A DNA stretch of 62,362 nucleotides from positions 1 through 62,362 of the IMG/VR virus record IMGVR_UViG_3300009146_000015, one strand, 5' to 3'. Position numbers and translations under genes: made by a program. Shown in pieces: positions 1-62,362 of the stretch (within the stretch, counting starts at the first letter, position 1; each line of letters begins with the position of its first letter). Source of the stretch: a virus. The notes under the pieces were generated by a model. That model saw nothing but the letters and a program-made list of their open reading frames with translations. It did no database searches and had not been told where the DNA came from.

Positions 1-3000
1 TACCTACGAATTCGTACTCCAGCGCACCGGTTGCGAGTGCCTGGTCGAGTGGACCGTCCCCATCGGCGTAACCGTGCAGGACGGACAGGTACGGTCTGCG
101 ATCAACCTTCAGACGGGCGCGGCAGTGGACACTCGCGCCCAGCAGGTGATGAGCGTCGATGAGCTTTTCGATCTCGTGGAGGATGCTCTCGGTGACGCGC
201 TGGCTGTCATGGTTGAACAGGCGATCGTTGAGGACGACATAGCCCTCGCCCGGCGTGCTCTCGTCCCGCATGTGGACATAGATGCCGTCGTACATCTCGC
301 CGGGCGCGACGCTGTACTGGCCACCGAGAAAGTTACGCAGGTCGGCGTCGCTGACGACGTAGACCTTCATGTCGCCGATCGCAGACGTCAGCCGGTTCTT
401 GAGGAAGGTCAGCGCGCTCTTGCGACCTTTGACCCCGCGCGCGGCGTCGCCAAGCTTGAGCTCGGCCAGCATGTCGCGGACGTTACTGTCCTGAAGTATG
501 CGCGAGAAAGTGCGACCACCGGGAATGTAGGGGCTCGCCAGCCAGCCGCCTTCCGGTCCCGCCTCGCGCCGCTCCCTGGCTTCCTCGGCACCGACCGTCC
601 CCTTTTTGGCGGCAGGCGGCTCGAAATCCGGCAGCGGCTCGTTGAGCTCGGCTTCAGTTTCGGTCTCTCCCTCGGTTTCGGTCTCCTCGTCGGGTTCGAT
701 CTCCAGCAGCTCGTCGACATCGATATTGACTTCGTTCTCGTCGCTGACCGTATGCAGCGGGATCTTCTCGATCTCCTTGACGATTGCGGCGTCAGCTTTG
801 GTGTCGACCACACCGATGTCGCGGTTCGGCTGGCGCGGTGCCTGCGCCTTGCCCTTGCGGGCGATCTCCCAAAGGTCGTTCAGCTGCCGTGATGCCGACT
901 GCTCCACCGCCTTCTGGCTGTTGTTTACAAAGGTGTTAGCGGTGCCAGTAGATTTATCCGATATGGCCTTCGCCATCTTCATCAGGCCGCGACCGCCACG
1001 CCGCGATGTGACCCCGGCAAAGCGCTTCTGCTGCTGCTCGGCAAACGCTTTGGCAGCGGCTTCCGGGCTGGCGTCCTCCTCTTCCTTCCGTAGCCGCTCC
1101 TTCTCCGCCAGTGCAGCCAGTTTAGCAGTAGTCTTCTCCTTGGCGCGCGCCGTCGCCTTCTCCATCGAGACACGGCGCTGTGCTGCCGCCTTGCGCTCGG
1201 CGTCGGTCTGCGGCCGCACCTCCTTCGGGTTCTCGCGGTAGTACTTGTCCTCCGCCATACGGGCTTCGCGTGCCGCCAGAGCAGTGACGAAACGCTCGTG
1301 CTCCTGACGAGCGCGGGTCGCCCGCAGTTTTACTTGCCGGGGGGTCAGCTCGGTATCCGACTTGACCTTCAGCCACGGCGGCACCGCCTTGCCGAGCCGG
1401 GCGAACTTGCTCCGCAGGCGCTTAAGCGCGGCCTGCATGTCGTTGTGCGCCACCAGTCCGGTGACGTTGCGACCCTCGTCCTTCCGCTCCTGCGCCCGCA
1501 TGCTGTCGTCGCGCGGCTTGGGAGGGGGCTCCGCACGGTGGGCGCGGCGTTCAGCCTCAAAGTCGGCGTTATACGGTATCGGCTCGCCAGTCGCTTCCGA
1601 GTACTCGACGTCTTCCGCGATCTCGACGTCGGTCATCTCCGGTGACGCCTGATCAGCGGCAGCCGGTTTTTCCTTCGTCCTTTGCCGGCTCTTGCCCTGC
1701 TCCTGCGCCCGCTCGCGCGACGGATCGACGTCCGTCCTGCCCGCCGCCCGCGCATCACGCAGCTCGCTCTCAGCCGCCAGCCACTCCTCCAGCATCTTCG
1801 GCGGGAACGGCCGGCTGTTCTTGTTGACAATGCGGTCGAGCTTGATCGCGTCCACCAGCCAGCTGTGCGTGCCCTTCAGTCCCTTGGTGCGGTACTTCTT
1901 GGGGAACTGGAATTTTGGGCCGAATTCCTTCTTACCGGCAGCCCGCACCCGGTCGACGTCAGCGGCGATGGCAGCGATACGGCGTTTCTGTCCGTCGATG
2001 TCCTTCGGGTCCTGGGCCTTCTTGGCGTGCCGATCGAACACCTCGTCAGCCCGCTCGACGACCGCGGCGTTGCGCGCCGTCTCGCCCGTGTTGGTGTCGA
2101 CCGGCGGCGGCAGGTTCTTGAGCTCGGCCGTGGCTTCGGCAGCAGCTTCCGGTTCACCGATCCGCTCTAGGAGCTCGAGTTCCTTGCGGCGCCGGACGAC
2201 CTCCGTGGTCCGCAGGCCGCGCACGCTCGTACCGATTTTCTTCTCCATCGCCCGCGACGTTGCGCGCCGCTCGGCGATATCCTCCTCGTCCTTGCTCTCC
2301 AAAATCCGGTGGAACTTGCCGTCGATGACGAAGCCGTCATAGTAGGTGGCGCTCTGCACCATATCCTTGTCTTTGAGCTTGTTCTCATCGACCACCCGCG
2401 CCCGCGCCTGATTGTGGCTGCCACCCTCGTAAATCCCCCGCGCCTCCTTGATCGGTCCGATATACGCCACGGCCGGGATGCGTTTCGGCGCTTTTGGTTT
2501 GGCTTCCGGCGCCTTTGGACGTGCAATCGGCAGCTTGCTGGTATCGATCGGCGGCAGCTTGCCAGGCACCGGTCCGGTGCGGCGGCGCTTGATCTTCTCG
2601 ACGACGGTGCCGGTCGCCGTAGTCAGCGGCTTTTTGGCCTTGCCCTTTGGCTTCTTGCCCTTGCGCTTGGGGATGCTCAGGATCTCGCGCGCCCGCGGCG
2701 TCTGCTTGTCGGGTACCGGCTCGGGTTCGGCAGCAAGATTGGCTTCGGCTTCGGCAATAGCTGCCTGCCGTTCGTCATTGGACATCCACGGCTCAGCCGC
2801 CAGTTCGGCAGTTGCTGCAGGCGGCGGCGCTGCTTTCTTCCCGCGCTTCCCCTTGGCCGGGGGCGCAGGAGCTTCGGCCAGCTCGGGGCCAGCCGTCGGC
2901 GCAGTATCCGGCACTGCGATTGGCGGCGGTGCTTCGACCCCGAAACGCTCCCGCATCTTGGTCAGCCGGTCGCGGATTAGCGCTTCGATCTCGGGTGTGA

Positions 3001-4666
3001 TCGGACCCGACGGCAGGCCCTCGGTGACGAAGTCCTCCATCGCCGCCCGGACTTCGGGGATTTCGGCGGCGAAAGTTAAATCCAGGGGTTGGTTACTTTC
3101 AGAAGTAACCTCTGGCGTTGTAGCGGGCGCAGGCGCAGCGGCGGGCGCGGCAGCTTCCGGCTCGGTCAGCAGCTCGACGTTCGACGTGGTGTCCGCAACC
3201 GGGGTCGAAGTCGACGGCTTGCGCTTCGGCGTCTCGATGATTTCAGTGGCGCTCGGCGCTCCGGGTACCGGCTTGATCGGCGGCGGTGGCGCAGTGCCGC
3301 TTGCCGGAACGCCGGGCGCGGCAGCATTGTCGGAAGGTTCAGGCGGTAGCGGCGGAGCGGGGCGCGCGCCCTCGGTACCGATTGGCGTCGGTGCCGGCGG
3401 ACCGCTGCTCTCACCAGTCAGCGCCGCCACCAGCGCCGGATCGACGCCGGGGGGCAGGCGATTGGCGGGGGGTTCTGGCGGCAGTGGTGGCGCAGCACCA
3501 GCTTTTGGCGGTGTCGCCGCTCGCTTCTTTGGCGGGGGCGCAGCCTGGCGCGAGGTCGTAGCGCCACCGGGCGACGATGGCGCTTCATAAGGCGACCACG
3601 GTGCACGTTCGACGGTCTGGTCGGGGACGGTGATACTCGGACCGGGCGGTGAGATCGGCGGGCCGACTTCCACGTCCTCCGGGATTTCCGGAAAACTGAA
3701 CGGCCCGTATTTCTCACGGGGAGAGCGAACGTCCTCGGTCTCCTCGATATCGACCGCACCCGGACGACCTTCGGGGAAGACGCCAGCACCAGCGCCAAGC
3801 ACGCTGCCGATCACGCCACCGGCCAGCGCCGCCTCGACCAGACGCTGGTCGTCGTACTCTTCCTGCAGCCCGGTCTCGACGCGGGTTGCCTGCATCGCCA
3901 GTTCTTCAGCGGTGTTCTGGATCGCCTCCTCGCCGCCCGACTGTCCCATTGCCGAGCCGACGCGGCGGATCAGTCCCTTGCGCGCCTCGCCAGTTACCGC
4001 ACCGGCAGTCCCGCGCTGGCCGATCTTGGAGACGATCTGACCGCCAGCGCTGAACCTCGCCAGCGCCGCGGTGACTACGGCAAGAGCGATGGGCTTGGCT
4101 CCGACCGCCAGCCGCTTGAACTCGCGCCGCGCCTCCTGCGGTGACAGGCCCCCGGCGATCAGCGACTGGTAGAGCTTGTTGCCGTCAAGGTTCTGGTTGT
4201 CCAGATCCTTGACCATGTCGTTGTAGGTGATGCCGGCACTGTGCACTCCGGCCAGGCCGGAGTTGAGTGCCAGCGCTACCGTAGGTCCCGAGACGATCGC
4301 GGCGGCGACACCGGCAGCGATCGGTGCGGCGGTGTTGGCGGTGTTGAGCAGCAGGTAGTCGAACTTGTGGTTCCAGAACGTCTCATCGCCGACCCTGGCC
4401 GACATGATCCGCTGCGCTGCCGGAGTGTTGGCGCCGCGGATGTCTTCACCCAGCTCGAACAGACTGTCAGCCAGTCCCTGCGATATATACTCGAGATCGC
4501 GCGCCATCGGGCTGTCGCCCTGGCTGGCGCCGTAAGCCACCATTGAAGGGACTGACCCGGCAAGGTCGGTGACGCTAGCAACGGCAGTGCGGCCGACGTC
4601 GCCCCAGGTCGCCCCCTGAGCTGCCTCCCGTCGTTGCGCTAGGCGTTCCTGTAATGCACTGGCCAT
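1..4666 (-). CDS. Giant polyvalent virion protein, N-terminal part (runs off the left edge)
   Basis: An open frame starts at ATG 4666, 2 bp after the stop of the 1590-aa virion protein gene, and stays open for about 1555 codons to the window edge. The N-terminal few hundred residues have hydrophobic and small-residue-rich helical stretches, followed by long Pro/Ala/Lys-rich disordered segments and charged coiled-coil-like segments. Near the left edge the protein reads GYVVLNDRLF followed by VTESILHE, the usual lead-in to a zincin-like HExxH helix of large polyvalent proteins. From about position 172 leftwards the reading changes to HEIEKL and no longer matches that family. The right-edge fragment supplies the expected HEFVH continuation, so I infer that the two are halves of one protein of about 2,700 aa. 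The probable role is an internal or ejected virion protein. Confidence 0.75.
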   Translation of the reverse strand, partial: MASALQERLAQRREAAQGATWGDVGRTAVASVTDLAGSVPSMVAYGASQGDSPMARDLEYISQGLADSLFELGEDIRGANTPAAQRIMSARVGDETFWNHKFDYLLLNTANTAAPIAAGVAAAIVSGPTVALALNSGLAGVHSAGITYNDMVKDLDNQNLDGNKLYQSLIAGGLSPQEARREFKRLAVGAKPIALAVVTAALARFSAGGQIVSKIGQRGTAGAVTGEARKGLIRRVGSAMGQSGGEEAIQNTAEELAMQATRVETGLQEEYDDQRLVEAALAGGVIGSVLGAGAGVFPEGRPGAVDIEETEDVRSPREKYGPFSFPEIPEDVEVGPPISPPGPSITVPDQTVERAPWSPYEAPSSPGGATTSRQAAPPPKKRAATPPKAGAAPPLPPEPPANRLPPGVDPALVAALTGESSGPPAPTPIGTEGARPAPPLPPEPSDNAAAPGVPASGTAPPPPIKPVPGAPSATEIIETPKRKPSTSTPVADTTSNVELLTEPEAAAPAAAPAPATTPEVTSESNQPLDLTFAAEIPEVRAAMEDFVTEGLPSGPITPEIEALIRDRLTKMRERFGVEAPPPIAVPDTAPTAGPELAEAPAPPAKGKRGKKAAPPPAATAELAAEPWMSNDERQAAIAEAEANLAAEPEPVPDKQTPRAREILSIPKRKGKKPKGKAKKPLTTATGTVVEKIKRRRTGPVPGKLPPIDTSKLPIARPKAPEAKPKAPKRIPAVAYIGPIKEARGIYEGGSHNQARARVVDENKLKDKDMVQSATYYDGFVIDGKFHRILESKDEEDIAERRATSRAMEKKIGTSVRGLRTTEVVRRRKELELLERIGEPEAAAEATAELKNLPPPVDTNTGETARNAAVVERADEVFDRHAKKAQDPKDIDGQKRRIAAIAADVDRVRAAGKKEFGPKFQFPKKYRTKGLKGTHSWLVDAIKLDRIVNKNSRPFPPKMLEEWLAAESELRDARAAGRTDVDPSRERAQEQGKSRQRTKEKPAAADQASPEMTDVEIAEDVEYSEATGEPIPYNADFEAERRAHRAEPPPKPRDDSMRAQERKDEGRNVTGLVAHNDMQAALKRLRSKFARLGKAVPPWLKVKSDTELTPRQVKLRATRARQEHERFVTALAAREARMAEDKYYRENPKEVRPQTDAERKAAAQRRVSMEKATARAKEKTTAKLAALAEKERLRKEEEDASPEAAAKAFAEQQQKRFAGVTSRRGGRGLMKMAKAISDKSTGTANTFVNNSQKAVEQSASRQLNDLWEIARKGKAQAPRQPNRDIGVVDTKADAAIVKEIEKIPLHTVSDENEVNIDVDELLEIEPDEETETEGETETEAELNEPLPDFEPPAAKKGTVGAEEARERREAGPEGGWLASPYIPGGRTFSRILQDSNVRDMLAELKLGDAARGVKGRKSALTFLKNRLTSAIGDMKVYVVSDADLRNFLGGQYSVAPGEMYDGIYVHMRDESTPGEGYVVLNDRLFNHDSQRVTESILHEIEKLIDAHHLLGASVHCRARLKVDRRPYLSVLHGYADGDGPLDQALATGALEYEFVG
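173..196. repeat. 24-bp edge repeat, left copy
   Basis: CTCGTGGAGGATGCTCTCGG then TGAC, identical to 62282-62305 and in the same orientation. Both copies encode TESILHE on the minus strand. This is the best candidate for the true overlap joining the two window edges. Confidence 0.7.
3092..3109. promoter_or_regulatory. Palindrome site 1 (perfect core)
   Basis: GTTACTTTCAGAAGTAAC, inside the giant polyvalent gene; it encodes VTSESN on the minus strand. Confidence 0.7.
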
Positions 4667-54046: not shown

Positions 54047-54589
54047 ATGGATGACCAAGCAGAGCGCAAGGAAACTGTATGGGTGGTTAGTGTTCTTGTT
54101 GTGTTACTTGTTGTGTTACTGGTGGTTATTCTGACGTGGAGCAGTAAGGCGCAAGCGGAGAAGTTCTCCGAGATCAGCGCGGTCAACGCCAGCTACTGCG
54201 CCCTTTACGCGCGGCAGATGGTGTTCATCGACGCCATGCACGGAGACGGCAAGCTGACGGCGGACAGCGACGTCATCAAGAACGCTGCGCTCGCCCATTA
54301 CGTCGACTGTATCTCGATCCTGCCGACGCTCCTGCCGCTGCCGTCCGACCTTGGCGGCTATGACCGTTGGGTCGTCGATATCCGCGACCTGGTGTTCCTG
54401 CGCGCCAAGGAGAAAGTCGTCACCATCGGCACGGTGCCGGCAACTGCGAAGCCTACCGACGAGGAATGGCGCCGGCAGTGCCGGGCCGAATATGCCAGCT
54501 GGAACGAGGAGGATGGAACCGTGATCCGCCGCGGTAACCCAACTCCGGTGCGATGCCCGTGCATGGCGGAAGTGCAATGTGTCTACTAA
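54047..54589 (+). CDS. Membrane-anchored protein with cysteine-rich end (180 aa)
   Basis: ATG 54047 is 6 bases after GGAG; ATG 54041 overlaps the GGAG spacing too closely. Residues about 10-31 are a strong transmembrane segment (TVWVVSVLVVLLVVLLVVIL), probably placing the rest in the periplasm. The soluble part is helical with conserved-looking Cys residues (ASYCALYARQM; HYVDCISILP; CRAEYASW; CPCMAEVQC), likely forming disulfides. It could be a superinfection or envelope factor; no family is known to me. Confidence 0.55.
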   Translation: MDDQAERKETVWVVSVLVVLLVVLLVVILTWSSKAQAEKFSEISAVNASYCALYARQMVFIDAMHGDGKLTADSDVIKNAALAHYVDCISILPTLLPLPSDLGGYDRWVVDIRDLVFLRAKEKVVTIGTVPATAKPTDEEWRRQCRAEYASWNEEDGTVIRRGNPTPVRCPCMAEVQCVY

Positions 54590-54605
54590 CCCACAGGAGA
54601 GTGAA

Positions 54606-54863
54606 ATGACCAACGATACGATCCCTACCCAGATGAACGTGCAGCTGCTCGGCAACGGCACCGTGATCCTGATGTCGGTTCACGTCAGCAGCGAGATGAA
54701 CACCAACTTCGTCATCGGTGCCGACAAGCTGGTGGTCATGCTCGAGGAGCTGATCAAGAAGGCGTCGGACTATCCAGACTCGCCGCTGTCGCGGATCACC
54801 GTCCGCCCGCTTGAGACGCTGGTCTATGGAGGCGACAAATACCACGGGGGCGAAACACCGTGA
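54606..54863 (+). CDS. Small beta/alpha protein (85 aa)
   Basis: ATG 54606 follows CACAGGAGAG. Strands VQLLGNGTVILMSVHV and NFVIGADKLVVM are followed by a helix (LEELIKKASD) and a Pro-rich end. It is compact and soluble. The stop overlaps the GTG start of the next gene. Function unknown. Confidence 0.5.
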   Translation: MTNDTIPTQMNVQLLGNGTVILMSVHVSSEMNTNFVIGADKLVVMLEELIKKASDYPDSPLSRITVRPLETLVYGGDKYHGGETP

Positions 54864-55180
54864 ATTGGATCGACCGCGCCTTGAATGCCGAAGCTCAGCT
54901 TGCCACTGCGATGGAGGAGCGAGATCTCGCACAAGCCCATTACGCCGGGCTGCAACGGGACCTAGCTGAAGCCAATGATGTGATCGGCTGCCTCACAGCC
55001 CTTGCCTCCCAGCTTGCCCCCTATGAAGCCCGCACCAAGAAGCTCGAAGCAGTGCTGCGGCCGTTTACATTCCCGGACCATCCCGAGAAGTTCACCAGCG
55101 CGGAAGGTGGTTGCACGGAAGTTATTATTGCGGACGAGCAGGTGCAAATCGCCCGCGCCACCCTTGGAGAGAAGCCATGA
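54860..55180 (+). CDS. Coiled-coil small protein (106 aa)
   Basis: GTG start 54860 on the previous TGA. The N-terminal 60 residues form a heptad-like helix (LNAEAQLATAMEERDLAQA; LQRDLAEANDVIGCL), followed by a short domain ending VQIARATLG. The protein is likely a small dimer. It shares an ATGA junction with the last gene of the arm. Function unknown. Confidence 0.5.
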   Translation: MNWIDRALNAEAQLATAMEERDLAQAHYAGLQRDLAEANDVIGCLTALASQLAPYEARTKKLEAVLRPFTFPDHPEKFTSAEGGCTEVIIADEQVQIARATLGEKP

Positions 55181-55455
55181 CTGGCGAAGGCGAGTGGATG
55201 CGCCGGGCGGAAGAGGCCGAAGAACTGTCTCGTCGCTACGGGCTTGAAGCCGAAAAGTACGAGGCGGCGCTGCAGCGGATAGTCCAGTGGGCGGACGCCT
55301 ACCCACTGGACGTTTTCCCCGAACCGGACTTCGCCAAGGCGCACGAACTGCTCAAGGCAGGTGGGATGACGCTGGACGCAATCAGCGCCAGCAACATGCG
55401 ACACGTTATCGAGGGCGTCGGCAAGATCGCGCGCGACGCCCTCGCTCCCGACTAG
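55177..55455 (+). CDS. Last gene of the rightward arm, helical protein (92 aa)
   Basis: Helical start ([35 protein letters not shown]), then a short loop and a C-terminal helix ([16 protein letters not shown]). Its 3' end overlaps the end of the leftward collagen/RTX gene by 4 bp, marking where the two arms converge. I see no clear terminator between them. Function unknown. Confidence 0.5.
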
Positions 55456-56174
55456 AAGTCGAAGTCGCCAGCGTCGAGCGATCCGATCTTCCGGCGACCG
55501 CACAGAATGCTGTCTCCACCGCCAAGGTCGATCAGTATGTTGTTTCCGACCTGCGTCATGTCGAGGTCGCCGAAGCTGGTGACATCCGTTCCCGACAGAT
55601 CGAGCTTGTCCCGCTTGGTGAGCCGGATCACGTCGTTGCCGTCGCCAGTGGCAAAGACGTAGAGGTCGGCTTGCCTGCCGCCTGCGAGGGTGTCGTCACC
55701 GAGCCCACCGATTACGGTATCCCTGCCTCTGCCGCCGAAGATGTAGTCGTCACCGCCAAGGCCGAACAGCGTGTCATTGCCGCCGCGACCGCTGATGATG
55801 TCGTTCAGTTCGGTGACCGGGTTCCAGTAATCGGCGTCGATCAGATTGGCCTTGCGCGTGCCGATGATGAAATTGCCAACGGTGTCGTTGGCGTTGGTTC
55901 CCGGAGTACCAGCAGGGCCAGCAGGGCCAGCAGGACCAGTAGGCCCAGCAGGGCCAGCAGGTCCAGGTTCTCCATCCTTACCCGGTGGACCGGCGGGACC
56001 AGGCTCCCCATCTTCGCCCGGCGGGCCGGGCGGGCCGGGCGGCCCTGCGGGTCCGGGGTCCCCATCTTCACCGTCCTTTCCGGGTGGTCCAGCAACACAT
56101 TCCTCGTCCTTGGTGTGGTCCTTGGTGCAACCGTCCTCGTGGTCCCAGTCCCAGTCCCATTGGAAATAAGTCAT
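55452..56174 (-). CDS. Collagen-like and RTX-repeat protein, probable virion spike (240 aa)
   Basis: Residues about 29-91 are 21 uninterrupted Gly-X-Y triplets ([19 protein letters not shown] and so on), which would trimerise as a collagen helix. Residues about 120-165 hold RTX-type calcium-binding nonapeptides ([38 protein letters not shown]), and the end [14 protein letters not shown] is typical of RTX C-terminal caps. The N-terminus is Trp/Asp-rich with two cysteines. Both repeat types suit an extended surface protein. It is the promoter-distal gene of the leftward late arm, behind lysis genes, with a GGGAG leader. Confidence 0.75.
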
Positions 56175-56212
56175 CGCTTAACTCCCTATCGCGATATTGA
56201 CGCCTGACGCTA

Positions 56213-56485
56213 CTACTTGTCGCCGCCGTTACGCCAGCCACGGTTCTTGCTCTTGTGCAGGGGCTTGAGGTTGGACCGGACGGTCTTTCCCCCTGCGCGG
56301 TGCCCCTTGATGTGAGCGGCATCGCGTGGGTCGCCCTTTTTCAGGCCCAGCATCTTGCGGGCCTTGTTGTCCTCATCGCGGATCTTGATCCGCTCCGGGC
56401 GAGCGTCGTAGCCCCGGTTCATGCGCTTGATCTGCCCGGGCGTACGATGGCTCGACGGGTCGCGTGTCTCCCCCTTCTCCGCCAC
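56213..56485 (-). CDS. Small basic protein with HNH-like region (90 aa)
   Basis: GTG start 56485, adjacent to the previous stop. The C-terminal half reads KGDPRDAAHIKGHRAGG, then SNLKPLHKSKNRG, which resembles the reduced HNH-like family where AH, a GG turn and SNL are conserved but further catalytic His residues are missing or shifted. The N-terminal part is very polar. It may be a nuclease relative or simply a basic virion-associated protein. The start is less certain than the frame. Confidence 0.5.
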   Translation of the reverse strand: MAEKGETRDPSSHRTPGQIKRMNRGYDARPERIKIRDEDNKARKMLGLKKGDPRDAAHIKGHRAGGKTVRSNLKPLHKSKNRGWRNGGDK

Positions 56486-56650
56486 CTACATCTTCCTCTT
56501 GCTGTAGTCCTTCGACGGCGCCCGGCCAGCTGGTGTCAGCTTCTTAGCGCTCGGCGTGCTGCCGATATCCTTGCCAGGACCGACGATCCCGATCGTGCCG
56601 CCAAAACGATGGGCAGGCTTCGCCTTCTTCGCTTTCTTCTTATTCGCCAT
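56486..56650 (-). CDS. Very small basic protein (54 aa)
   Basis: ATG 56650 sits 1 base after a palindrome variant whose minus-strand reading ends GGAGGTAAC, a perfect Shine-Dalgarno. The protein starts MANKKKAKKAKPAHRFGG and ends APSKDYSKRK, basic and disordered. Function unknown. Confidence 0.5.
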   Translation of the reverse strand: MANKKKAKKAKPAHRFGGTIGIVGPGKDIGSTPSAKKLTPAGRAPSKDYSKRKM

Positions 56651-56651
56651 A

Positions 56652-56668
56652 GTTACCTCCAAAGTAAT
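56652..56668. promoter_or_regulatory. Palindrome variant, 3-nt spacer, merged with ribosome-binding site (leftward)
   Basis: GTTACCTCCAAAGTAAT; read leftward it ends GGAGGTAAC one base before ATG 56650. Confidence 0.65.
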
Positions 56669-56672
56669 CAAT

Positions 56673-56831
56673 CTATTTTTCGCTCTTTTTGCCTTTGGGG
56701 GTCAGCTTTTGCGTCCCCTTCTTAAGCTCCCCCGACTTCTGCAGCGTCGACGTCGCGATCGCATACGCTTCCTCCCGGCTATGACCCTTGGCCCTCAGCT
56801 GCTGCACCAGTCGCTCGAGGATCTTCGGCAT
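56673..56831 (-). CDS. Small helical basic protein (52 aa)
   Basis: ATG 56831 follows AGGAGGAAG. The sequence, LERLVQQLRAKGHSREEAYA then IATSTLQKSGELKKGTQKLT, is a compact helical unit seen in many small phage and bacterial proteins of unknown function. It lies between a membrane protein and other basic small proteins in the late arm. Confidence 0.6.
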   Translation of the reverse strand: MPKILERLVQQLRAKGHSREEAYAIATSTLQKSGELKKGTQKLTPKGKKSEK

Positions 56832-56844
56832 CAGAAGCTTCCTC

Positions 56845-57048
56845 CTACGGCAGCGCCACGCCAAGCCCCGGCAGGATCGCCCGCAGTATCCAGAGTATTG
56901 CTAAGAGCGCAAAGACCACCCAGATCGCTTGCACCACCTTGGCCGGTATCTGCCAGCCGATGACCGTGGCAAACACATAAAGCACCAGCCAGACGACAAT
57001 GGCTGCGACGACAATGTAGATCAACGCAATGAGAACAGCCTCGATCAT
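56845..57048 (-). CDS. Small membrane protein, Thivi_2564-like, possible holin (67 aa)
   Basis: Two transmembrane segments occupy residues about 3-30 (AVLIALIYIVVAAIVVWLVL) and about 37-60 (VQAIWVVFALLAILWILRAI), with a short loop between. The sequence resembles the small Thivi_2564-type membrane proteins of proteobacteria. Proximity to the amidase (three genes upstream in the same transcript) makes a holin role plausible, but this family is also found outside phages. Shine-Dalgarno AGGAGGGAA precedes ATG 57048. Confidence 0.6.
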   Translation of the reverse strand: MIEAVLIALIYIVVAAIVVWLVLYVFATVIGWQIPAKVVQAIWVVFALLAILWILRAILPGLGVALP

Positions 57049-57148
57049 CGTTCCCTCCTGTAAAAAGCGAGGCGGTTCCGGTCACGGGTGACAGCGCTTC
57101 CCCCGAGGGTATGAGACTTCAGGGGGATTTGGACGCGCCTTTCCCGCC

Positions 57149-57511
57149 TCAGTTCTGTGGCGTCACCTTCGGCGCCGCATTGACGATTTCCCAGTCGACC
57201 GCCAGCAAGTCGGTCTGTGAGCACAGCCACGGCACCACCGAACCGTCTGCCGTCTGCATGTCGACGTGAGGCTGGTAGTTGATCTGGGTTCCTACCTCGT
57301 AGTGGGCAGCCATCGGCCGGCCCTCGCTGACGGCAAAAGTCGATCCCGGCACCAGGAACAGGAACATCCCCCTGCCGTTCCAGCCGCGCCGAGCAACGGT
57401 GGCACCGGCCAGCAGCTGTTTCACCGCCCAACCGATGCCACCGCGCTCCGCGGGGGCCTCGGCCGCGGCACGGAATTTGCGCTGGTCTTCCTCGAAGTGC
57501 TCCCTCGTCAT
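57149..57511 (-). CDS. tad2: Tad2-like anti-Thoeris protein, DUF2829 family (120 aa)
   Basis: ATG 57511 with GGGAGA 6 bases upstream is the right start; a longer frame would run into the amidase gene. Residues about 25-110 match the DUF2829/Tad2 domain (PF11195): GIGWAVKQLLAGATVARRGW, NGRGMFLFLVPG, and the closing VPWLCSQTDLLAVDWEIV. In known family members the protein forms oligomers that sequester the cyclic ADP-ribose-type signal of Thoeris, blocking abortive infection. It lies between the endolysin and small membrane protein and is therefore in the late transcript, unless an internal promoter is present. The N-terminal 22 residues are an extra helix. Confidence 0.8.
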   Translation of the reverse strand: MTREHFEEDQRKFRAAAEAPAERGGIGWAVKQLLAGATVARRGWNGRGMFLFLVPGSTFAVSEGRPMAAHYEVGTQINYQPHVDMQTADGSVVPWLCSQTDLLAVDWEIVNAAPKVTPQN

Positions 57512-57522
57512 TGTTCTCTCCC

Positions 57523-58206
57523 TCACATGAAGCTCTGAACGTGCCGGCGAAACTCGTCGCAGACCTCGGTCTTGCTCAGCCCCGACGACCACGGCAGCTT
57601 GGTGATGTCCCATTTGCCGTTCTGCGGCACGCCCTGGTTCGACTGCCACTCGCCGTGCTGCATGATCTTGTAGCGGTCGTTGGGGATCTTGTAGCGGATC
57701 GCGAGCTCGGCAGCGCACTTGGCCAGCGTCATCCACTGCAGCTCGGTCAGCGGGTATTTGCCGGCGTTGAATGGGCTCTCAACCGCACCTGCCATGCATG
57801 CTGCAGCAAGGCCAATATTCTTGGTGTTGGCTTGGTTGGTGTGGGCGGCATAACCGTCGGCATCGCTGGTACTGACGTTGGCCTTGATCGAGTAATCGCC
57901 TCGCACCAGTCGACCGCCTCCATCGACGATGATGTGGTAGTGCTCCTTGTCGGCGCTTGAAACCTCATAGGCACCCGCGCTCCAATGGGTGGTGATGTAG
58001 ATCATGGTGCATTCGGGCATCCACTCGATCGGAATGATCTGTCCTTCGGGCGGCGGTGGCGGCTCCTTGTCGAGGTCCATGCCGGTGTTAAACCAGCCCT
58101 TGGTCGCACCCTCGGTTGACGGTCCCCACAGCCCGTCGGCGCCGTAAGCGCCACAGGAAAATCCGTGGGCAATTAATTTCTCCTGAAAGGCTTTGGGCGT
58201 AAGCAT
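57523..58206 (-). CDS. N-acetylmuramoyl-L-alanine amidase endolysin (227 aa)
   Basis: The N-terminus (LTPKAFQEKLIAHGFSCGAY, then GLWGPSTEGATKGW) is a short peptidoglycan-binding-type domain, followed by a Pro-rich linker (about 48-55). The catalytic Amidase_2 domain has His74 in YITTHWSAG, a central HYHIIVDGGG, His184 in MQHGEWQ and Asp200 in KWDITKLPW, the three zinc ligands of the family. There is no signal peptide, so a holin is required for release. ATG 58206 follows AAGGGGG and a perfect-core palindrome, with a hairpin before that. Confidence 0.88.
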   Translation of the reverse strand: MLTPKAFQEKLIAHGFSCGAYGADGLWGPSTEGATKGWFNTGMDLDKEPPPPPEGQIIPIEWMPECTMIYITTHWSAGAYEVSSADKEHYHIIVDGGGRLVRGDYSIKANVSTSDADGYAAHTNQANTKNIGLAAACMAGAVESPFNAGKYPLTELQWMTLAKCAAELAIRYKIPNDRYKIMQHGEWQSNQGVPQNGKWDITKLPWSSGLSKTEVCDEFRRHVQSFM

Positions 58207-58217
58207 TTGACCCCCTT

Positions 58218-58235
58218 GTTACTTTTAGAAGTAAC
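58218..58235. promoter_or_regulatory. Palindrome (perfect core) before the endolysin
   Basis: GTTACTTTTAGAAGTAAC, 11 bp before ATG 58206 and touching the hairpin at 58236. Confidence 0.85.
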
Positions 58236-58264
58236 GGGCCGGAGAGGTCGGTGGTCTCCGGCCC
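58236..58264 (-). terminator. Hairpin before the endolysin gene
   Basis: GGGCCGGAGA with TCTCCGGCCC, a perfect 10-bp stem and 9-nt loop, read leftward between the coiled-coil gene and the endolysin. It touches the palindrome at 58218-58235, giving the same hairpin-palindrome-gene order as in the rightward arm. Confidence 0.55.
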
Positions 58265-58272
58265 GCACCCTG

Positions 58273-58647
58273 TTACCGCTTGCCGCGCCCTTCGACGTTG
58301 GGGTCATACTCGGGCTCGGGCGGTACAAGTGCTTCTGCTTCCTCACCAAGCGCTGCCGCTGCGGCATCGCGGGTCTCCTTGGCCTTGGCTTCTGCCGCGT
58401 CGGCGTTGGCGTCACTCGCCTGGTTCTCCGGCCAGCTCCGCTCCGCGGTGGCGGCGTCCTGCCGCAGCTTGTCGCGGGTCGACTGCTCGGCGTAGAGGCC
58501 GATATGGGCGTTGGCTTCGTTGGCGTCGTGCGCCGCCTTGGCGGTGTTCTTCGCCTCGCGCTCTGCCGCCTCGGCATCGCGTAATGCCTTGGCCTTCTCC
58601 TGAGCTTCGCTCTTGGGTTCAGCCTGGGCCGGTCCGATATCGCTCAT
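58273..58647 (-). CDS. Ala/Glu-rich coiled-coil protein (124 aa)
   Basis: ATG 58647 has GGAGGAAAGCG upstream and is preferred to the longer frame. Most of the chain is a charged helix (AQEKAKALRDAEAAEREAKN; DKLRQDAATAERSW; AAEAKAKETRDAAAAALG) with no membrane or signal segment, so a spanin is unlikely. It lies between the giant virion protein and the endolysin. A virion-assembly or scaffold-like helper is a guess. Confidence 0.5.
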   Translation of the reverse strand: MSDIGPAQAEPKSEAQEKAKALRDAEAAEREAKNTAKAAHDANEANAHIGLYAEQSTRDKLRQDAATAERSWPENQASDANADAAEAKAKETRDAAAAALGEEAEALVPPEPEYDPNVEGRGKR

Positions 58648-58684
58648 CGCTTTCCTCCATGTTAAACACCAGTTGTCCACTTAC

Positions 58685-61600
58685 TCACCGGGCGTTGTAG
58701 ACGCCTTGAGCCCTCTCTAGCACATAACGGTTGGCCCGGGTCGGCCGAACACCGCTTTCCATCTCCTCAATTTCCGACGACCGCCGGCTGGTGTAGGCCC
58801 TCAACGCAGCATTAGTCAGCTGTGCATCCTTCGGCTTACCGCGATTGAAGCGCTCGATCCGGCCTCGCATGCGGACACGCTCTCTGGATGAAGCGTCAGC
58901 CCATGCCCGCTGCAGCTCTCCCCGCTCCTTGTTGATGGCAGTCTGGCTGGCGTAGAACTGCGCCTTGAGATCCTGATCCTCGGCCTCGCGTTCCGGTGTG
59001 GCACCGAGCACCCGGATGAACATCTCCGAGAACGAATAGGGATCCATCGACGGGCGACCGGTGCGGGTCTCCTTGCCGAACGCACCAACGTCAACGGCTT
59101 TAATCAGATCCTTCAGCGCCTTGACCGGCGCCAGTTTCGGCAGCGCTGCCGAATAGTCACCGTCGATCAGCTCCCGTGCCCCTTGCCCGTAGTCGTAAAG
59201 CATCATCCCGGGCGCGCCGATCAGCATGTCCTGCAGCCAATTCTTGACGTCCTCGGGATCGCCGGAAGTCGGCTCGCGGGCAAGGAACATGTCGGCCATG
59301 CCGACGCGCTGCGACATGTCGAACGCCAGCCCGAACGGCAGGGCGCGGGTGATGCCACGGGTGACGACTTCACCCAGGTCGGGCCCTAGCAGGTCCGCTG
59401 CCAGTTCACGTTCGGCATTCTCGAAGTCCTGCCAGCTGAACGGCACGCCCAGCATCTGCAGTCCGAGGACCATCGCCTTGATCGGCTCTGTCGGCAGCCC
59501 GAGCGTGCCGGCCATCAGAGTGTGAGTGGCGGCGATATAGGCCAGCGACTTCAGCGCCTCGGCGCGATCGCCGGGGCTCTCGTTGCGCCACGCCCGGCCA
59601 ATCTGTTGACCGAGCAGCTGGTACATGGCGTGACCGAAGCGCTTGAACTGGAACGTCACCTTGAGCAGCGGGTGATTGAACAGTCGGGGTGCGTTAACCT
59701 CCGAATAATTGAAGTTGGTCATGTTGTTGGTGTCGTCGGCGTACTGCAGCGCGGCTTCGTGGTTGCCGCCATTGGCCGCGTACTCGAGCCGATATGCGGC
59801 GAGCAGGACGGCAGCGCGGTTGATCGCCTCGGCCGACGACGGCATCTGCCGGGTGATCTGCTCCAGCCAGTTGAGCGCGGTATCGGTTGCTTCCAGCGAT
59901 TTCGCAGCGACGCCACCCTGCGGCCGGCGCAGCCGCTGCCGTTTGGAAATCTCCAGTCCGCCGCGGAAGTCGAGGAACTGGAAGACCTCAGCCTCGCGTT
60001 CGAGTATACCCGCGCGACTGGTTAGGTCCTCGATGAAGGTGGCGCTTTCGGCATCCGGATTTTTCGCCTTCTTCCACGTCTCAACGGCCCCACGCTTGGC
60101 CATGTCGAGCGCGCCAATATCCTTGTAAGCCTTGCCAAACGCCCGCACCGTCGGCGCTACCTTGTGGCGAGCAGCAACCACCGGCATCGACACCATGCTG
60201 ACCTGCATCAGGTTCATGATGGTGTACATCGGCGAGCCGAGCCGAGCGACGAACGAAGCGGTAAGGATGCGGGATACGAATGGCGAGTACCACTGGCTGT
60301 CGTGGACAAAGCCGTTGCCCTTGTCGACGCGCTTGACGACTTCGTTCCAGATCGCCCGCCGCCCGAGCGCCCCGGCACGATGACCAGCGTCGATCGACTG
60401 CTGGCCGTCACGCATGACCTGGTTGAGCTCCTGCGCGTGCTCCAGACGGGCGAGGTAGCTGGCCGTACTGTCAGCGTAGTCGATCATCGCCCGGGTGATA
60501 TCCAGCGACGCGCCGCTGACGCTGCGGCGTGCGATCCGGCGCTTGTGGACGCGGGTCGAGCTCATCATCTGCAGCCCGAACTCCTGCGCCGCCAGACGGA
60601 GCTGGTTCTGCATCTCCTTGGGCATATCCTTGTAGCCCTGCCGCTTCTCCAGCGACTTGATCATCAGGCTGACGTCGGCAGACGAGATGTCGATGCCGCG
60701 GTCGCCGGGCGACCACTGGCGCTCCTGCACACCCTCGACGCTCTCAACGTCGGGGTCACTCTCCAGCTCATGGGCTTCCCGGAGCGCCGTCGCCTTGTCA
60801 TCGAAGAACTCGACGTGGTCCTCCTGCACCTCGGTGCGGAACACCCGGACAGCGCCGGGGTCCTTCATCGTGATCTTGACGCGGCTGCCCGGTGCCTCGC
60901 TGTCGTCAGGCAGAATGTCCCAGCTCTCGCCGGTTTTCTCGTCGACGGTGGTGCCGCTGACCCAGGCTTTTTCCTTGGTCGCAGCGGCGTATTCCATCGC
61001 CCGCTCGCGGGCGTCCTTGCCGCGGAACTCGTAGACGTTGGTGGTACCCTCCTTGAGCGTCCCCTTGAGCCGGGCAGCGGGCGCGGCAACCTTGAGCTTG
61101 GCCCGCACCACCCACTTGCCGCGCCGCATCAGCGGGAAGTACGGCCCGAGCATATGGTAGAGCTCCTTGGCCCGGACGATCCGGGTCAAAAGCTCGGGGT
61201 TGCCCTTGAACAGCGCCTTGTCGGCGTCGGTCATCTCCTTGCCGAGGATGCGATCGACCAGCCCCTCGTCGATATCCTTAGCGTCGATCTCGCCGCGGAA
61301 GCCCTCGACCAGCATGTTGTGCACCAGAAGGTGCGACATCAGGAACTGGCGCTCGCGCATGAAGTCATGCAGGTCGTGGCGGAGCTCGTCGAGATACGGC
61401 GCTGCGTCGATAATCTCGGCATACTCGCGCGACAGCTCGGCATACTTGGCCCGCGCCTGCACCCCCTTCAGCGTCGGATTGCCAACCGGGTCCTTGCCAA
61501 GATGCGTCTGGGCGGCAAGCGGCTGGTCGACGAAGACGTTGGCGTTGGTCTCATCGTTGATCAGCTGGGCGAACCGCGACCACATCTCACGCCCGGCCCG

Positions 61601-62362
61601 CTTCTCGGCATGCACCATGCGGTCGATCAGCGCCTCGGCCATCTTCTGATTACGATTGGTCTGCCGGATGATGTTGGTCAGGATCCGGTAAACCCGCCGC
61701 ACCGGGTTGTCCTTGCTTCTCCAGTAGCGGTCGGCAGTGCGGGCGAGCTGATCGAGCCCCGCCAGCATCAGCGCCTTGGGCACCCGCATCTGCTCCTGCC
61801 GGCCCTCGCCCGTGTAGCTCTCGTAGATATCGCGAGTGACGCGCCTCGCGGTCTCACGTGGTGAAATCTTAGCGTGGACAGTGACCTCGCTGTCCCGCGC
61901 TGCCGCTGCCGCCGTCTCCGCTTTGGCGGTCAGGCGTTCGGTGGCATGCATCACCGCGTCGAGCACCGACAGATCGTTGCCAAGCTTGCCGATGGTCTTA
62001 CTTACGAAAGTAACAAATGCCTGCCACGCGTCCGCCAGCGTGCCGCGCTTGATCCCCAGCTGCCGTGCCATCCGCTTCGACAGCGGGGTGCCGGCAAGCA
62101 GCTCCTGGAATGCCGGGTTGCTCATCGCTTCGGCGACGAACTCGAACACGTCGTTGAAGCCGTAGTGCTTGGACGGATCGACGATGCCGTGGTGGCGGAT
62201 AACGTCGCCCATCAGGGTCTCAAGATAGGCCCGCAGGCGCGGATCGCGCTTGATCCCGGCGATTGTCGCTCCGTGCACGAACTCGTGGAGGATGCTCTCG
62301 GTGACCGCCTCGACATCCACAAAAAACAAAAGACAGAGCAGCAACAACAAAAACACACCAGA
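58685..62362 (-). CDS. Giant polyvalent virion protein, C-terminal part with zincin and LPD38-like domains (about 1200 aa)
   Basis: The frame is open from the right edge; GTG 62356 lies in an odd T/G-rich stretch and is probably not a true start. ILHEFVHGAT at 62267-62296 is an HExxH zinc-protease-like helix, followed by NDVFEFVAEAMSNPAF, a conserved companion segment. The C-terminal 500 residues, with NAPRLFNHPLLKVTFQFK and RFGHAMYQLLGQQIG, are the large-polyvalent-protein-associated domain 38 pattern. Proteins of this kind are virion components injected with DNA. I infer that this is the rest of the gene that starts at 4666. A palindrome copy is embedded at 61997. Confidence 0.75.
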   Translation of the reverse strand, partial: SGVFLLLLLCLLFFVDVEAVTESILHEFVHGATIAGIKRDPRLRAYLETLMGDVIRHHGIVDPSKHYGFNDVFEFVAEAMSNPAFQELLAGTPLSKRMARQLGIKRGTLADAWQAFVTFVSKTIGKLGNDLSVLDAVMHATERLTAKAETAAAAARDSEVTVHAKISPRETARRVTRDIYESYTGEGRQEQMRVPKALMLAGLDQLARTADRYWRSKDNPVRRVYRILTNIIRQTNRNQKMAEALIDRMVHAEKRAGREMWSRFAQLINDETNANVFVDQPLAAQTHLGKDPVGNPTLKGVQARAKYAELSREYAEIIDAAPYLDELRHDLHDFMRERQFLMSHLLVHNMLVEGFRGEIDAKDIDEGLVDRILGKEMTDADKALFKGNPELLTRIVRAKELYHMLGPYFPLMRRGKWVVRAKLKVAAPAARLKGTLKEGTTNVYEFRGKDARERAMEYAAATKEKAWVSGTTVDEKTGESWDILPDDSEAPGSRVKITMKDPGAVRVFRTEVQEDHVEFFDDKATALREAHELESDPDVESVEGVQERQWSPGDRGIDISSADVSLMIKSLEKRQGYKDMPKEMQNQLRLAAQEFGLQMMSSTRVHKRRIARRSVSGASLDITRAMIDYADSTASYLARLEHAQELNQVMRDGQQSIDAGHRAGALGRRAIWNEVVKRVDKGNGFVHDSQWYSPFVSRILTASFVARLGSPMYTIMNLMQVSMVSMPVVAARHKVAPTVRAFGKAYKDIGALDMAKRGAVETWKKAKNPDAESATFIEDLTSRAGILEREAEVFQFLDFRGGLEISKRQRLRRPQGGVAAKSLEATDTALNWLEQITRQMPSSAEAINRAAVLLAAYRLEYAANGGNHEAALQYADDTNNMTNFNYSEVNAPRLFNHPLLKVTFQFKRFGHAMYQLLGQQIGRAWRNESPGDRAEALKSLAYIAATHTLMAGTLGLPTEPIKAMVLGLQMLGVPFSWQDFENAERELAADLLGPDLGEVVTRGITRALPFGLAFDMSQRVGMADMFLAREPTSGDPEDVKNWLQDMLIGAPGMMLYDYGQGARELIDGDYSAALPKLAPVKALKDLIKAVDVGAFGKETRTGRPSMDPYSFSEMFIRVLGATPEREAEDQDLKAQFYASQTAINKERGELQRAWADASSRERVRMRGRIERFNRGKPKDAQLTNAALRAYTSRRSSEIEEMESGVRPTRANRYVLERAQGVYNAR
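61997..62014. promoter_or_regulatory. Palindrome (perfect core) inside the giant polyvalent gene
   Basis: CTTACTTACGAAAGTAAC encodes FVSKT on the minus strand. Confidence 0.65.
62282..62305. repeat. 24-bp edge repeat, right copy
   Basis: This copy has the same 24 bases as 173-196. To its left the coding sequence continues as a normal zincin domain; to its right the window ends in a 57-bp stretch that turns into A/C-rich low complexity. Confidence 0.7.
62319..62362. other. Low-complexity right edge
   Basis: The last 44 bases are A/C-rich (AAAAAACAAAAGACAGAGC and CAACAACAAAAACACACC) in a genome that is otherwise GC-rich. This is unlike any other coding region here and may be an assembly or read-end artefact. 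Confidence 0.5.

What the first reader, a model, noticed from the sequence alone, without database searches (positions are those of the whole stretch)
57149..57511. Tad2 anti-Thoeris gene beside the endolysin
The DUF2829/Tad2 signature is complete (ARRGWNGRGMFLF and VPWLCSQTDLLAVDWE). It implies that hosts of this phage carry Thoeris defence. The location in the late lysis block is unexpected for an anti-defence protein that must act early, unless it is expressed from a local promoter or also carried in the virion.
Basis: partly seen in the sequence, partly recalled or inferred. Interest (0 to 1): 0.7.

Follow-up and report, generated by a model that had tools for sequence, protein, structure and literature searches.

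The report
Phage Tad2 immune sponge beside endolysin
A virus that probably infects Rhizobium-type soil bacteria carries an ordinary Tad2 gene, whose relatives soak up the alarm molecule of the bacterial Thoeris defence; it lies among the genes made late in infection, which makes sense because Thoeris can be triggered by the virus's late-made capsid protein.

Summary
The ORF is real: 57149-57511, minus strand, 120 aa. It is an unambiguous Tad2-family protein: Pfam Tad2-like 79.5 bits against a cut-off of 25; phmmer hits only Tad2/AcrIIA7 chains; the predicted fold (pLDDT 92) matches ModTad2, SptTad2, HgmTad2 and SPO1 Tad2, and the next unrelated Foldseek hit is E=0.44. It starts 11 nt after the Amidase_2 endolysin and is followed by a two-helix membrane ORF (candidate holin). 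Every called gene from portal and capsid to this cassette is on the same strand, so late expression is likely. 'Must act early' does not follow: studied Thoeris systems are triggered by the major head protein, itself late, and Tad2 sits in lysis or structural blocks of several unrelated phages. 'Implies Thoeris hosts' is untested: the host is unknown (relatives infect Rhizobium), and ThsA-type effectors were found in 3 of 385 alphaproteobacterial genomes. New details: the first 16 residues match the start of a different ORF at the same site in the closest relative (13/16), so the domain was swapped in, or out, there; and capsid relatives lack Tad2 or carry it elsewhere. Verdict: a new member of a known family, modest interest.

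The parts
57149..57511 (-). tad2: 120-aa Tad2-family protein; Tad2 domain at residues 26-110 preceded by a 24-aa helical N-terminal extension
57440..57511 (-). N-terminal extension of Tad2 (residues 1-24, MTREHFEEDQRKFRAA...); residues 1-16 match the start of the ORF at the same site in relative L050 (13/16 identical)
57523..58206 (-). Amidase_2 endolysin with weak N-terminal peptidoglycan-binding match, directly upstream of tad2
56845..57048 (-). 67-aa ORF with two strongly hydrophobic segments, candidate holin or small membrane lysis protein (inference; no family match)
56673..56864 (-). small basic ORF; its homologue follows tad2 and a membrane ORF in L017/L018 as well
58273..58680 (-). small ORF between the polyvalent protein and the endolysin; no family match
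58685..62356 (-). C-terminal part of a giant virion-type polyvalent protein (weak DarB-like similarity), same strand upstream of the lysis cassette

Best explanation
The gene encodes a Tad2-type nucleotide sponge. Its product should form the known Tad2 oligomer and bind, without degrading it, the ADP-ribose-derived signal (gcADPR or His-ADPR) that a host Thoeris TIR protein makes during infection, so that the ThsA effector is not activated and the cell survives until lysis. It is most likely transcribed with the late minus-strand block (portal, capsid, virion proteins, endolysin) and translated right behind the endolysin, so sponge and capsid, the known Thoeris trigger, would accumulate together. 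Shown: sequence family, fold, conserved loop residues, gene order and strand. Inferred: oligomer, ligand, late transcription, anti-Thoeris effect.
For: Pfam PF11195 at 79.5 bits. PDB relatives are all Tad2/AcrIIA7. AlphaFold model pLDDT 91.8; Foldseek E 4e-9 to 5e-9 to SptTad2 and ModTad2-hisADPR, next non-family hit E 0.44; VIA Z 11.4, 2.6 A over 87 residues to ModTad2. In 42 homologues R41, G43, W44, N45, G46, D101 and D106 are invariant, and G48, M49, W95, S98, L103, W107 nearly so; on the model these lie in the loop after the first strand, the loop before the last helix and that helix, in line with the published description of the gcADPR pocket (PMC12043709). Thoeris senses the major head protein (PMC12578639). 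All called genes 2-25654 and 55452-62320 are on the minus strand, the same layout as in the circular Rhizobium phage TM3_14A. 11-nt spacer to the endolysin. Lysis-cassette or endolysin-adjacent Tad2 elsewhere: L017/L018, L023 and L034, Pasteurella phage Pm86, Vibrio phage 44E38.1 two genes from the endolysin, AP-20-A holin p014 / Tad2 p015 / autolysin p016 (PMC13299392).
Against: No binding or plaque data. Host unknown; ThsA-type effectors rare in sampled Alphaproteobacteria (3 of 385). Capsid sensing was shown for staphylococcal and streptococcal Thoeris, not for alphaproteobacterial ones. Transcription timing untested. Some Tad2 genes lie in replication blocks, so a late position is not a rule of the family. 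Pocket residues were mapped from a published description, not from coordinates.
Confidence: 0.75

Rival explanations
1. Tad2-type sponge whose main ligand is a cyclic dinucleotide (anti-CBASS) rather than a Thoeris signal.
For: SptTad2 and HgmTad2 bind cyclic dinucleotides (PMC12043709); SptTad2-cGG is the top Foldseek hit.
Against: Cyclic-dinucleotide binding is attributed to a long insertion between beta2 and beta5. The window domain (residues 26-110, 85 aa) is close to ModTad2 and SPO1 Tad2 (82 each), shorter than SptTad2 (94) and HgmTad2/AcrIIA7 (99). SPO1 Tad2 does not bind 3'3'-cGAMP (PMC11722364).
Confidence: 0.08
2. AcrIIA7-type anti-CRISPR (Cas9 inhibitor).
For: AcrIIA7 belongs to the same family and is a PDB hit (8kbi, 9kzr); some phage records label the gene anti-CRISPR.
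Against: The same AcrIIA7/HgmTad2 protein has been crystallised with cADPR and cGG, pointing to a sponge; nothing in the window concerns Cas9.
Confidence: 0.04
3. The Tad2 fold has been recruited to the lysis cassette, for instance to time lysis or to act through the shared N-terminal helix, and no longer serves mainly as a sponge.
For: Tad2 sits between the endolysin and a small membrane ORF here and in L017/L018 and next to holin and autolysin in AP-20-A. Its first 16 residues match the start of another ORF at the same site in L050.
Against: Loop residues of the family are intact. L050 has no Tad2 but a similar endolysin and membrane ORFs, so lysis does not need it. Endolysin adjacency in 3 of 41 surveyed loci is not clearly above chance.
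Confidence: 0.07
4. Early expression from a local promoter, or delivery with the virion.
For: A large polyvalent virion-type gene with DarB-like similarity lies just upstream; an early-acting sponge would protect from any early trigger.
Against: No sigma70-like promoter in 54500-59000 and only 11 nt to the endolysin. No packaging signal is known; L017's Tad2 lacks the N-terminal extension.
Confidence: 0.06

Closest known systems
Tad2 of the Myroides odoratus prophage (ModTad2, PDB 9eib, 8v3e), described as inhibiting type II Thoeris by binding His-ADPR
   Same: Best PDB sequence match (4e-15), similar domain length, VIA Z 11.4
   Different: About one third identical; the window protein has a 24-aa N-terminal extension and lies in a podovirus lysis cassette
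SPO1 phage Tad2 (Gp34.65, PDB 8sme, 8smf, 8smg), inhibits type I Thoeris by binding gcADPR
   Same: Same family, fold and conserved loops
   Different: About 35% identical; in the related Bacillus phage SP8 the gene lies in a run of small genes of unknown function, not next to an annotated endolysin
P015 of Sinorhizobium phage AP-20-A (PMC13299392)
   Same: Tad2-like protein in a rhizobiophage, numbered between holin p014 and autolysin p016
   Different: 97 aa; from the published description a different podovirus lineage; its sequence could not be compared here
Tad2 of IMG/VR contigs L017/L018
   Same: Directly after a 57%-identical amidase endolysin, then a membrane ORF and a homologue of 56673-56864; capsid 72% identical
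   Different: 75 aa, no N-terminal extension, much shorter middle loop, 47% identical; the cassette lies between capsid and internal virion protein

Membership tests
Tad2 (PF11195, Thoeris anti-defence 2) | Match to the PF11195 profile above its curated cut-off over nearly the full model | tested here: met
   79.5 bits against 25, profile 3-73 of 73
Tad2 (PF11195, Thoeris anti-defence 2) | Tad2 fold | tested here: met
   Model pLDDT 91.8; Foldseek and VIA matches to the solved Tad2 structures
Tad2 (PF11195, Thoeris anti-defence 2) | Conserved residues in the loops that form the ADP-ribose-signal pocket | tested here: met
   R41, G43-G46, D101, D106 invariant and present; mapped to loops from the description in PMC12043709, not from coordinates
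Tad2 (PF11195, Thoeris anti-defence 2) | Homotetramer with pockets between protomers | not testable with these tools
   Only the monomer was predicted
Tad2 (PF11195, Thoeris anti-defence 2) | Binds gcADPR or His-ADPR and protects a phage from Thoeris | not testable with these tools
   Needs a binding assay and a plaque assay
Cyclic-dinucleotide-binding Tad2 subgroup (SptTad2, HgmTad2) | Long insertion between beta2 and beta5 | tested here: not met
   Domain 85 aa against 94 and 99 for the cyclic-dinucleotide binders, 82 for ModTad2 and SPO1 Tad2
AcrIIA7 anti-CRISPR | Inhibits type II-A Cas9 | not testable with these tools
   Shared sequence family only

The most novel reading that the evidence does not exclude
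Late placement is an adaptation: phages put Tad2 on the same late transcript as the capsid protein that triggers Thoeris, here by swapping the Tad2 domain behind the conserved start of a small lysis-cassette gene, so that sponge and trigger rise together.
Probability: 0.25. Interest if true: 0.5.

Novelty: new member of a known kind. Interest (0 to 1): 0.3.

Why it matters
Tad2 in a rhizobial-type podovirus lineage adds to a report of 2026 that called Tad2 new for rhizobiophages (PMC13299392), although annotated DUF2829 genes are present in Rhizobium phage records. The more useful point is timing: anti-defence genes are often expected to be early, but a sponge against a capsid-triggered alarm can be late. 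That can be tested by transcription timing and by moving the gene between early and late positions in a laboratory phage.

Tried and rejected
Megablast of 23.6 kb of the window against phages: no match. Enrichment of endolysin adjacency: 3 of 41 distinct loci (L017, L023, L034) have an endolysin as immediate neighbour; with two neighbours in roughly 60 genes about 1.4 would be expected, so I do not claim enrichment (rough estimate). A second source of the N-terminal extension: a scan with the L050 ORF found only itself, and no other fetched start matched better than 8/16, a chance hit in L027. Host by prophage: the genome scan returned only six distant Tad2 loci, the best in Oceanicaulis, so host was inferred from capsid and endolysin relatives only. 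A Tad2 tree had too few columns to date the transfer; it puts the window near L005, L002 and L003. VIA hits at Z 5.0 or less (phage 812 neck, ribosomal proteins, HU) were treated as common arrangements. A search with the primase for more relatives gave nothing useful.

Full report
Observation. The ORF at 57149-57511 on the minus strand is open, 120 aa, starts with ATG and carries both quoted motifs. Pfam-A gives one family, PF11195 Tad2-like, 79.5 bits against a cut-off of 25, covering profile positions 3-73 of 73. Searching the whole record with the same family gives this single place. phmmer against all PDB chains returns only Tad2/AcrIIA7 proteins: ModTad2, HgmTad2/AcrIIA7, SptTad2 and SPO1 Gp34.65.

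Structure. With 41 homologues from viral contigs as the alignment, AlphaFold2 gives a mean pLDDT of 91.8. Foldseek against the PDB ranks 24 Tad2-family chains first (E 4e-9 to 4e-6); the next hit is E 0.44. VIA-align gives Z 10.1-11.4 for the Tad2 entries and 5.0 or less for everything else. Columns R41, G43, W44, N45, G46, D101 and D106 are invariant in the 42 sequences, and G48, M49, W95, S98, L103 and W107 nearly so. On the model they lie in the loop after the first strand, the loop before the last helix, and that helix. A review describes the gcADPR pockets as built from the beta1-beta2, beta3-beta4 and beta4-alpha3 loops, strand beta4 and helix alpha3 (PMC12043709). I had no coordinates, so this mapping is by description.

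Ligand. The same review attributes cyclic-dinucleotide binding to a long insertion between beta2 and beta5. The window domain spans 85 residues; ModTad2 and SPO1 Tad2 span 82, SptTad2 94 and HgmTad2/AcrIIA7 99. The window protein is therefore of the short type, and a Thoeris ADP-ribose signal is the likelier ligand. PMC13299392 states that the Myroides protein binds His-ADPR (type II) and SPO1 Tad2 binds gcADPR (type I). The window protein is slightly closer to the Myroides protein, which is too little to choose between the two.

Surroundings. The upstream gene is an Amidase_2 endolysin ending 11 nt before the tad2 start, with an SD-like GAGGGAG overlapping its stop codon. Downstream lies a 67-aa ORF with two strongly hydrophobic segments, a candidate holin without family match. 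All called genes in 2-25654 and 55452-62320 are on the minus strand, and the circular relative Rhizobium phage RHph_TM3_14A has the same layout, with its late genes running on one strand across the record's start. So tad2 is most simply read as lying near the far end of the late block. No sigma70-like promoter was found in 54500-59000, although phage-specific promoters would not be seen.

The phage. Structural proteins match a podovirus-like set: head-tail adaptor phrog_332, internal virion protein phrog_511, major head protein phrog_267. The capsid is 68% identical to those of four Rhizobium phages, and the endolysin's nearest annotated relatives are Rhizobium and Sinorhizobium phages. A rhizobial or other alphaproteobacterial host is inferred, not shown.

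Is a late position odd? Thoeris of Staphylococcus and Streptococcus is activated by the phage major head protein (PMC12578639), which phages make late. A sponge made on the late transcript would arrive with the trigger. Tad2 also lies in lysis or structural blocks elsewhere: directly after an amidase in L017/L018; after an endolysin ORF in L023 and before an amidase in L034; a few genes after holin and lysozyme in Pasteurella phage Pm86; two genes before the endolysin in Vibrio phage 44E38.1; between terminase and a DUF1073 gene in Klebsiella phage IME346. In Sinorhizobium phage AP-20-A the gene numbers place it between holin p014 and autolysin p016 (PMC13299392). Neighbours in 41 distinct viral contigs include scaffold, portal, capsid, terminase and head proteins as well as replication proteins, and several annotated phages have it among replication genes. 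So a late position is common enough not to need a special explanation, but not universal, and endolysin adjacency is not shown to be enriched.

Does it imply Thoeris hosts? Only as an inference. In 385 alphaproteobacterial genomes, ThsB-type TIR domains were found in 55, a macro-type ThsA in two and a STALD-type ThsA in one, each of the three on the same contig as, and within a few kb of, a ThsB-type hit. The defence exists in the class but canonical systems look rare at this sensitivity.

Origin of the gene. The closest relative with the same region, L050 (endolysin 65%, primase 66%, capsid 95% identical), has no Tad2. At the same site it has a 63-aa ORF whose first 16 residues match those of the window Tad2 at 13 positions, followed by a proline-rich tail. 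Among all start codons in the fetched loci no other comes near this, apart from one chance 8/16. So the Tad2 domain was joined to, or lost from, an existing small gene of the lysis cassette; direction unknown. L017's Tad2 lacks this extension and starts right after the endolysin stop. Of 47 records reached through capsid relatives, many of them fragments, two others have Tad2, on the far side of the terminase gene. Tad2 is thus an accessory gene of this lineage, found in three different places.

Judgement. A well-supported Tad2-family member with a sensible late context. Family and fold are shown; ligand, timing and anti-Thoeris action are inferred. The novel parts, the swapped N-terminus and the match between late expression and a late trigger, are modest and testable.

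Noticed in passing
L043:9767-10267: Tad2 protein preceded by a second, degenerate-looking Tad2-like stretch (KRPHWAGYWM...AAEDWEV), suggesting a tandem two-domain form; judged by eye from the translation only.
   Followed up: no
L012:9770-10258, L044:9833-10297, L049:1777-2208, L027, L029: Tad2 domain is the C-terminal part of longer proteins with different N-terminal regions; L012, L044 and L049 share one type (YIG...SWSPK), in line with the C-terminal match to phrog_1048 and phrog_872.
   Followed up: partly
window 58685-62356 and 2-4543: Large open frames run off both ends of the record on the minus strand; joined they are out of frame (8344 bases, remainder 1), so if the genome is circular a few bases are missing or the ends differ.
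   Followed up: partly
window 55452-56174: Protein joining a collagen-like repeat to RTX calcium-binding repeats, last gene of the minus-strand block; possibly a fibre or decoration protein.
   Followed up: no
window 3980-4069: ARAGORN reports a tRNA-Leu (cag) inside a long virion-type open frame on the same strand; possibly a false positive.
   Followed up: no
PMC13299392, genes p014-p016 of Sinorhizobium phage AP-20-A: Gene numbers place Tad2 between holin and autolysin; the passages read here do not comment on it. The paper calls Tad2 new for rhizobiophages, but annotated DUF2829 genes exist in Rhizobium phages RHph_I1_18 and RHph_Y2_17_1.
   Followed up: partly
Alphaproteobacteria sample: ThsB-type TIR domains in 55 of 385 genomes against ThsA-type effectors in 3, so most such TIR domains may belong to other systems.
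   Followed up: no
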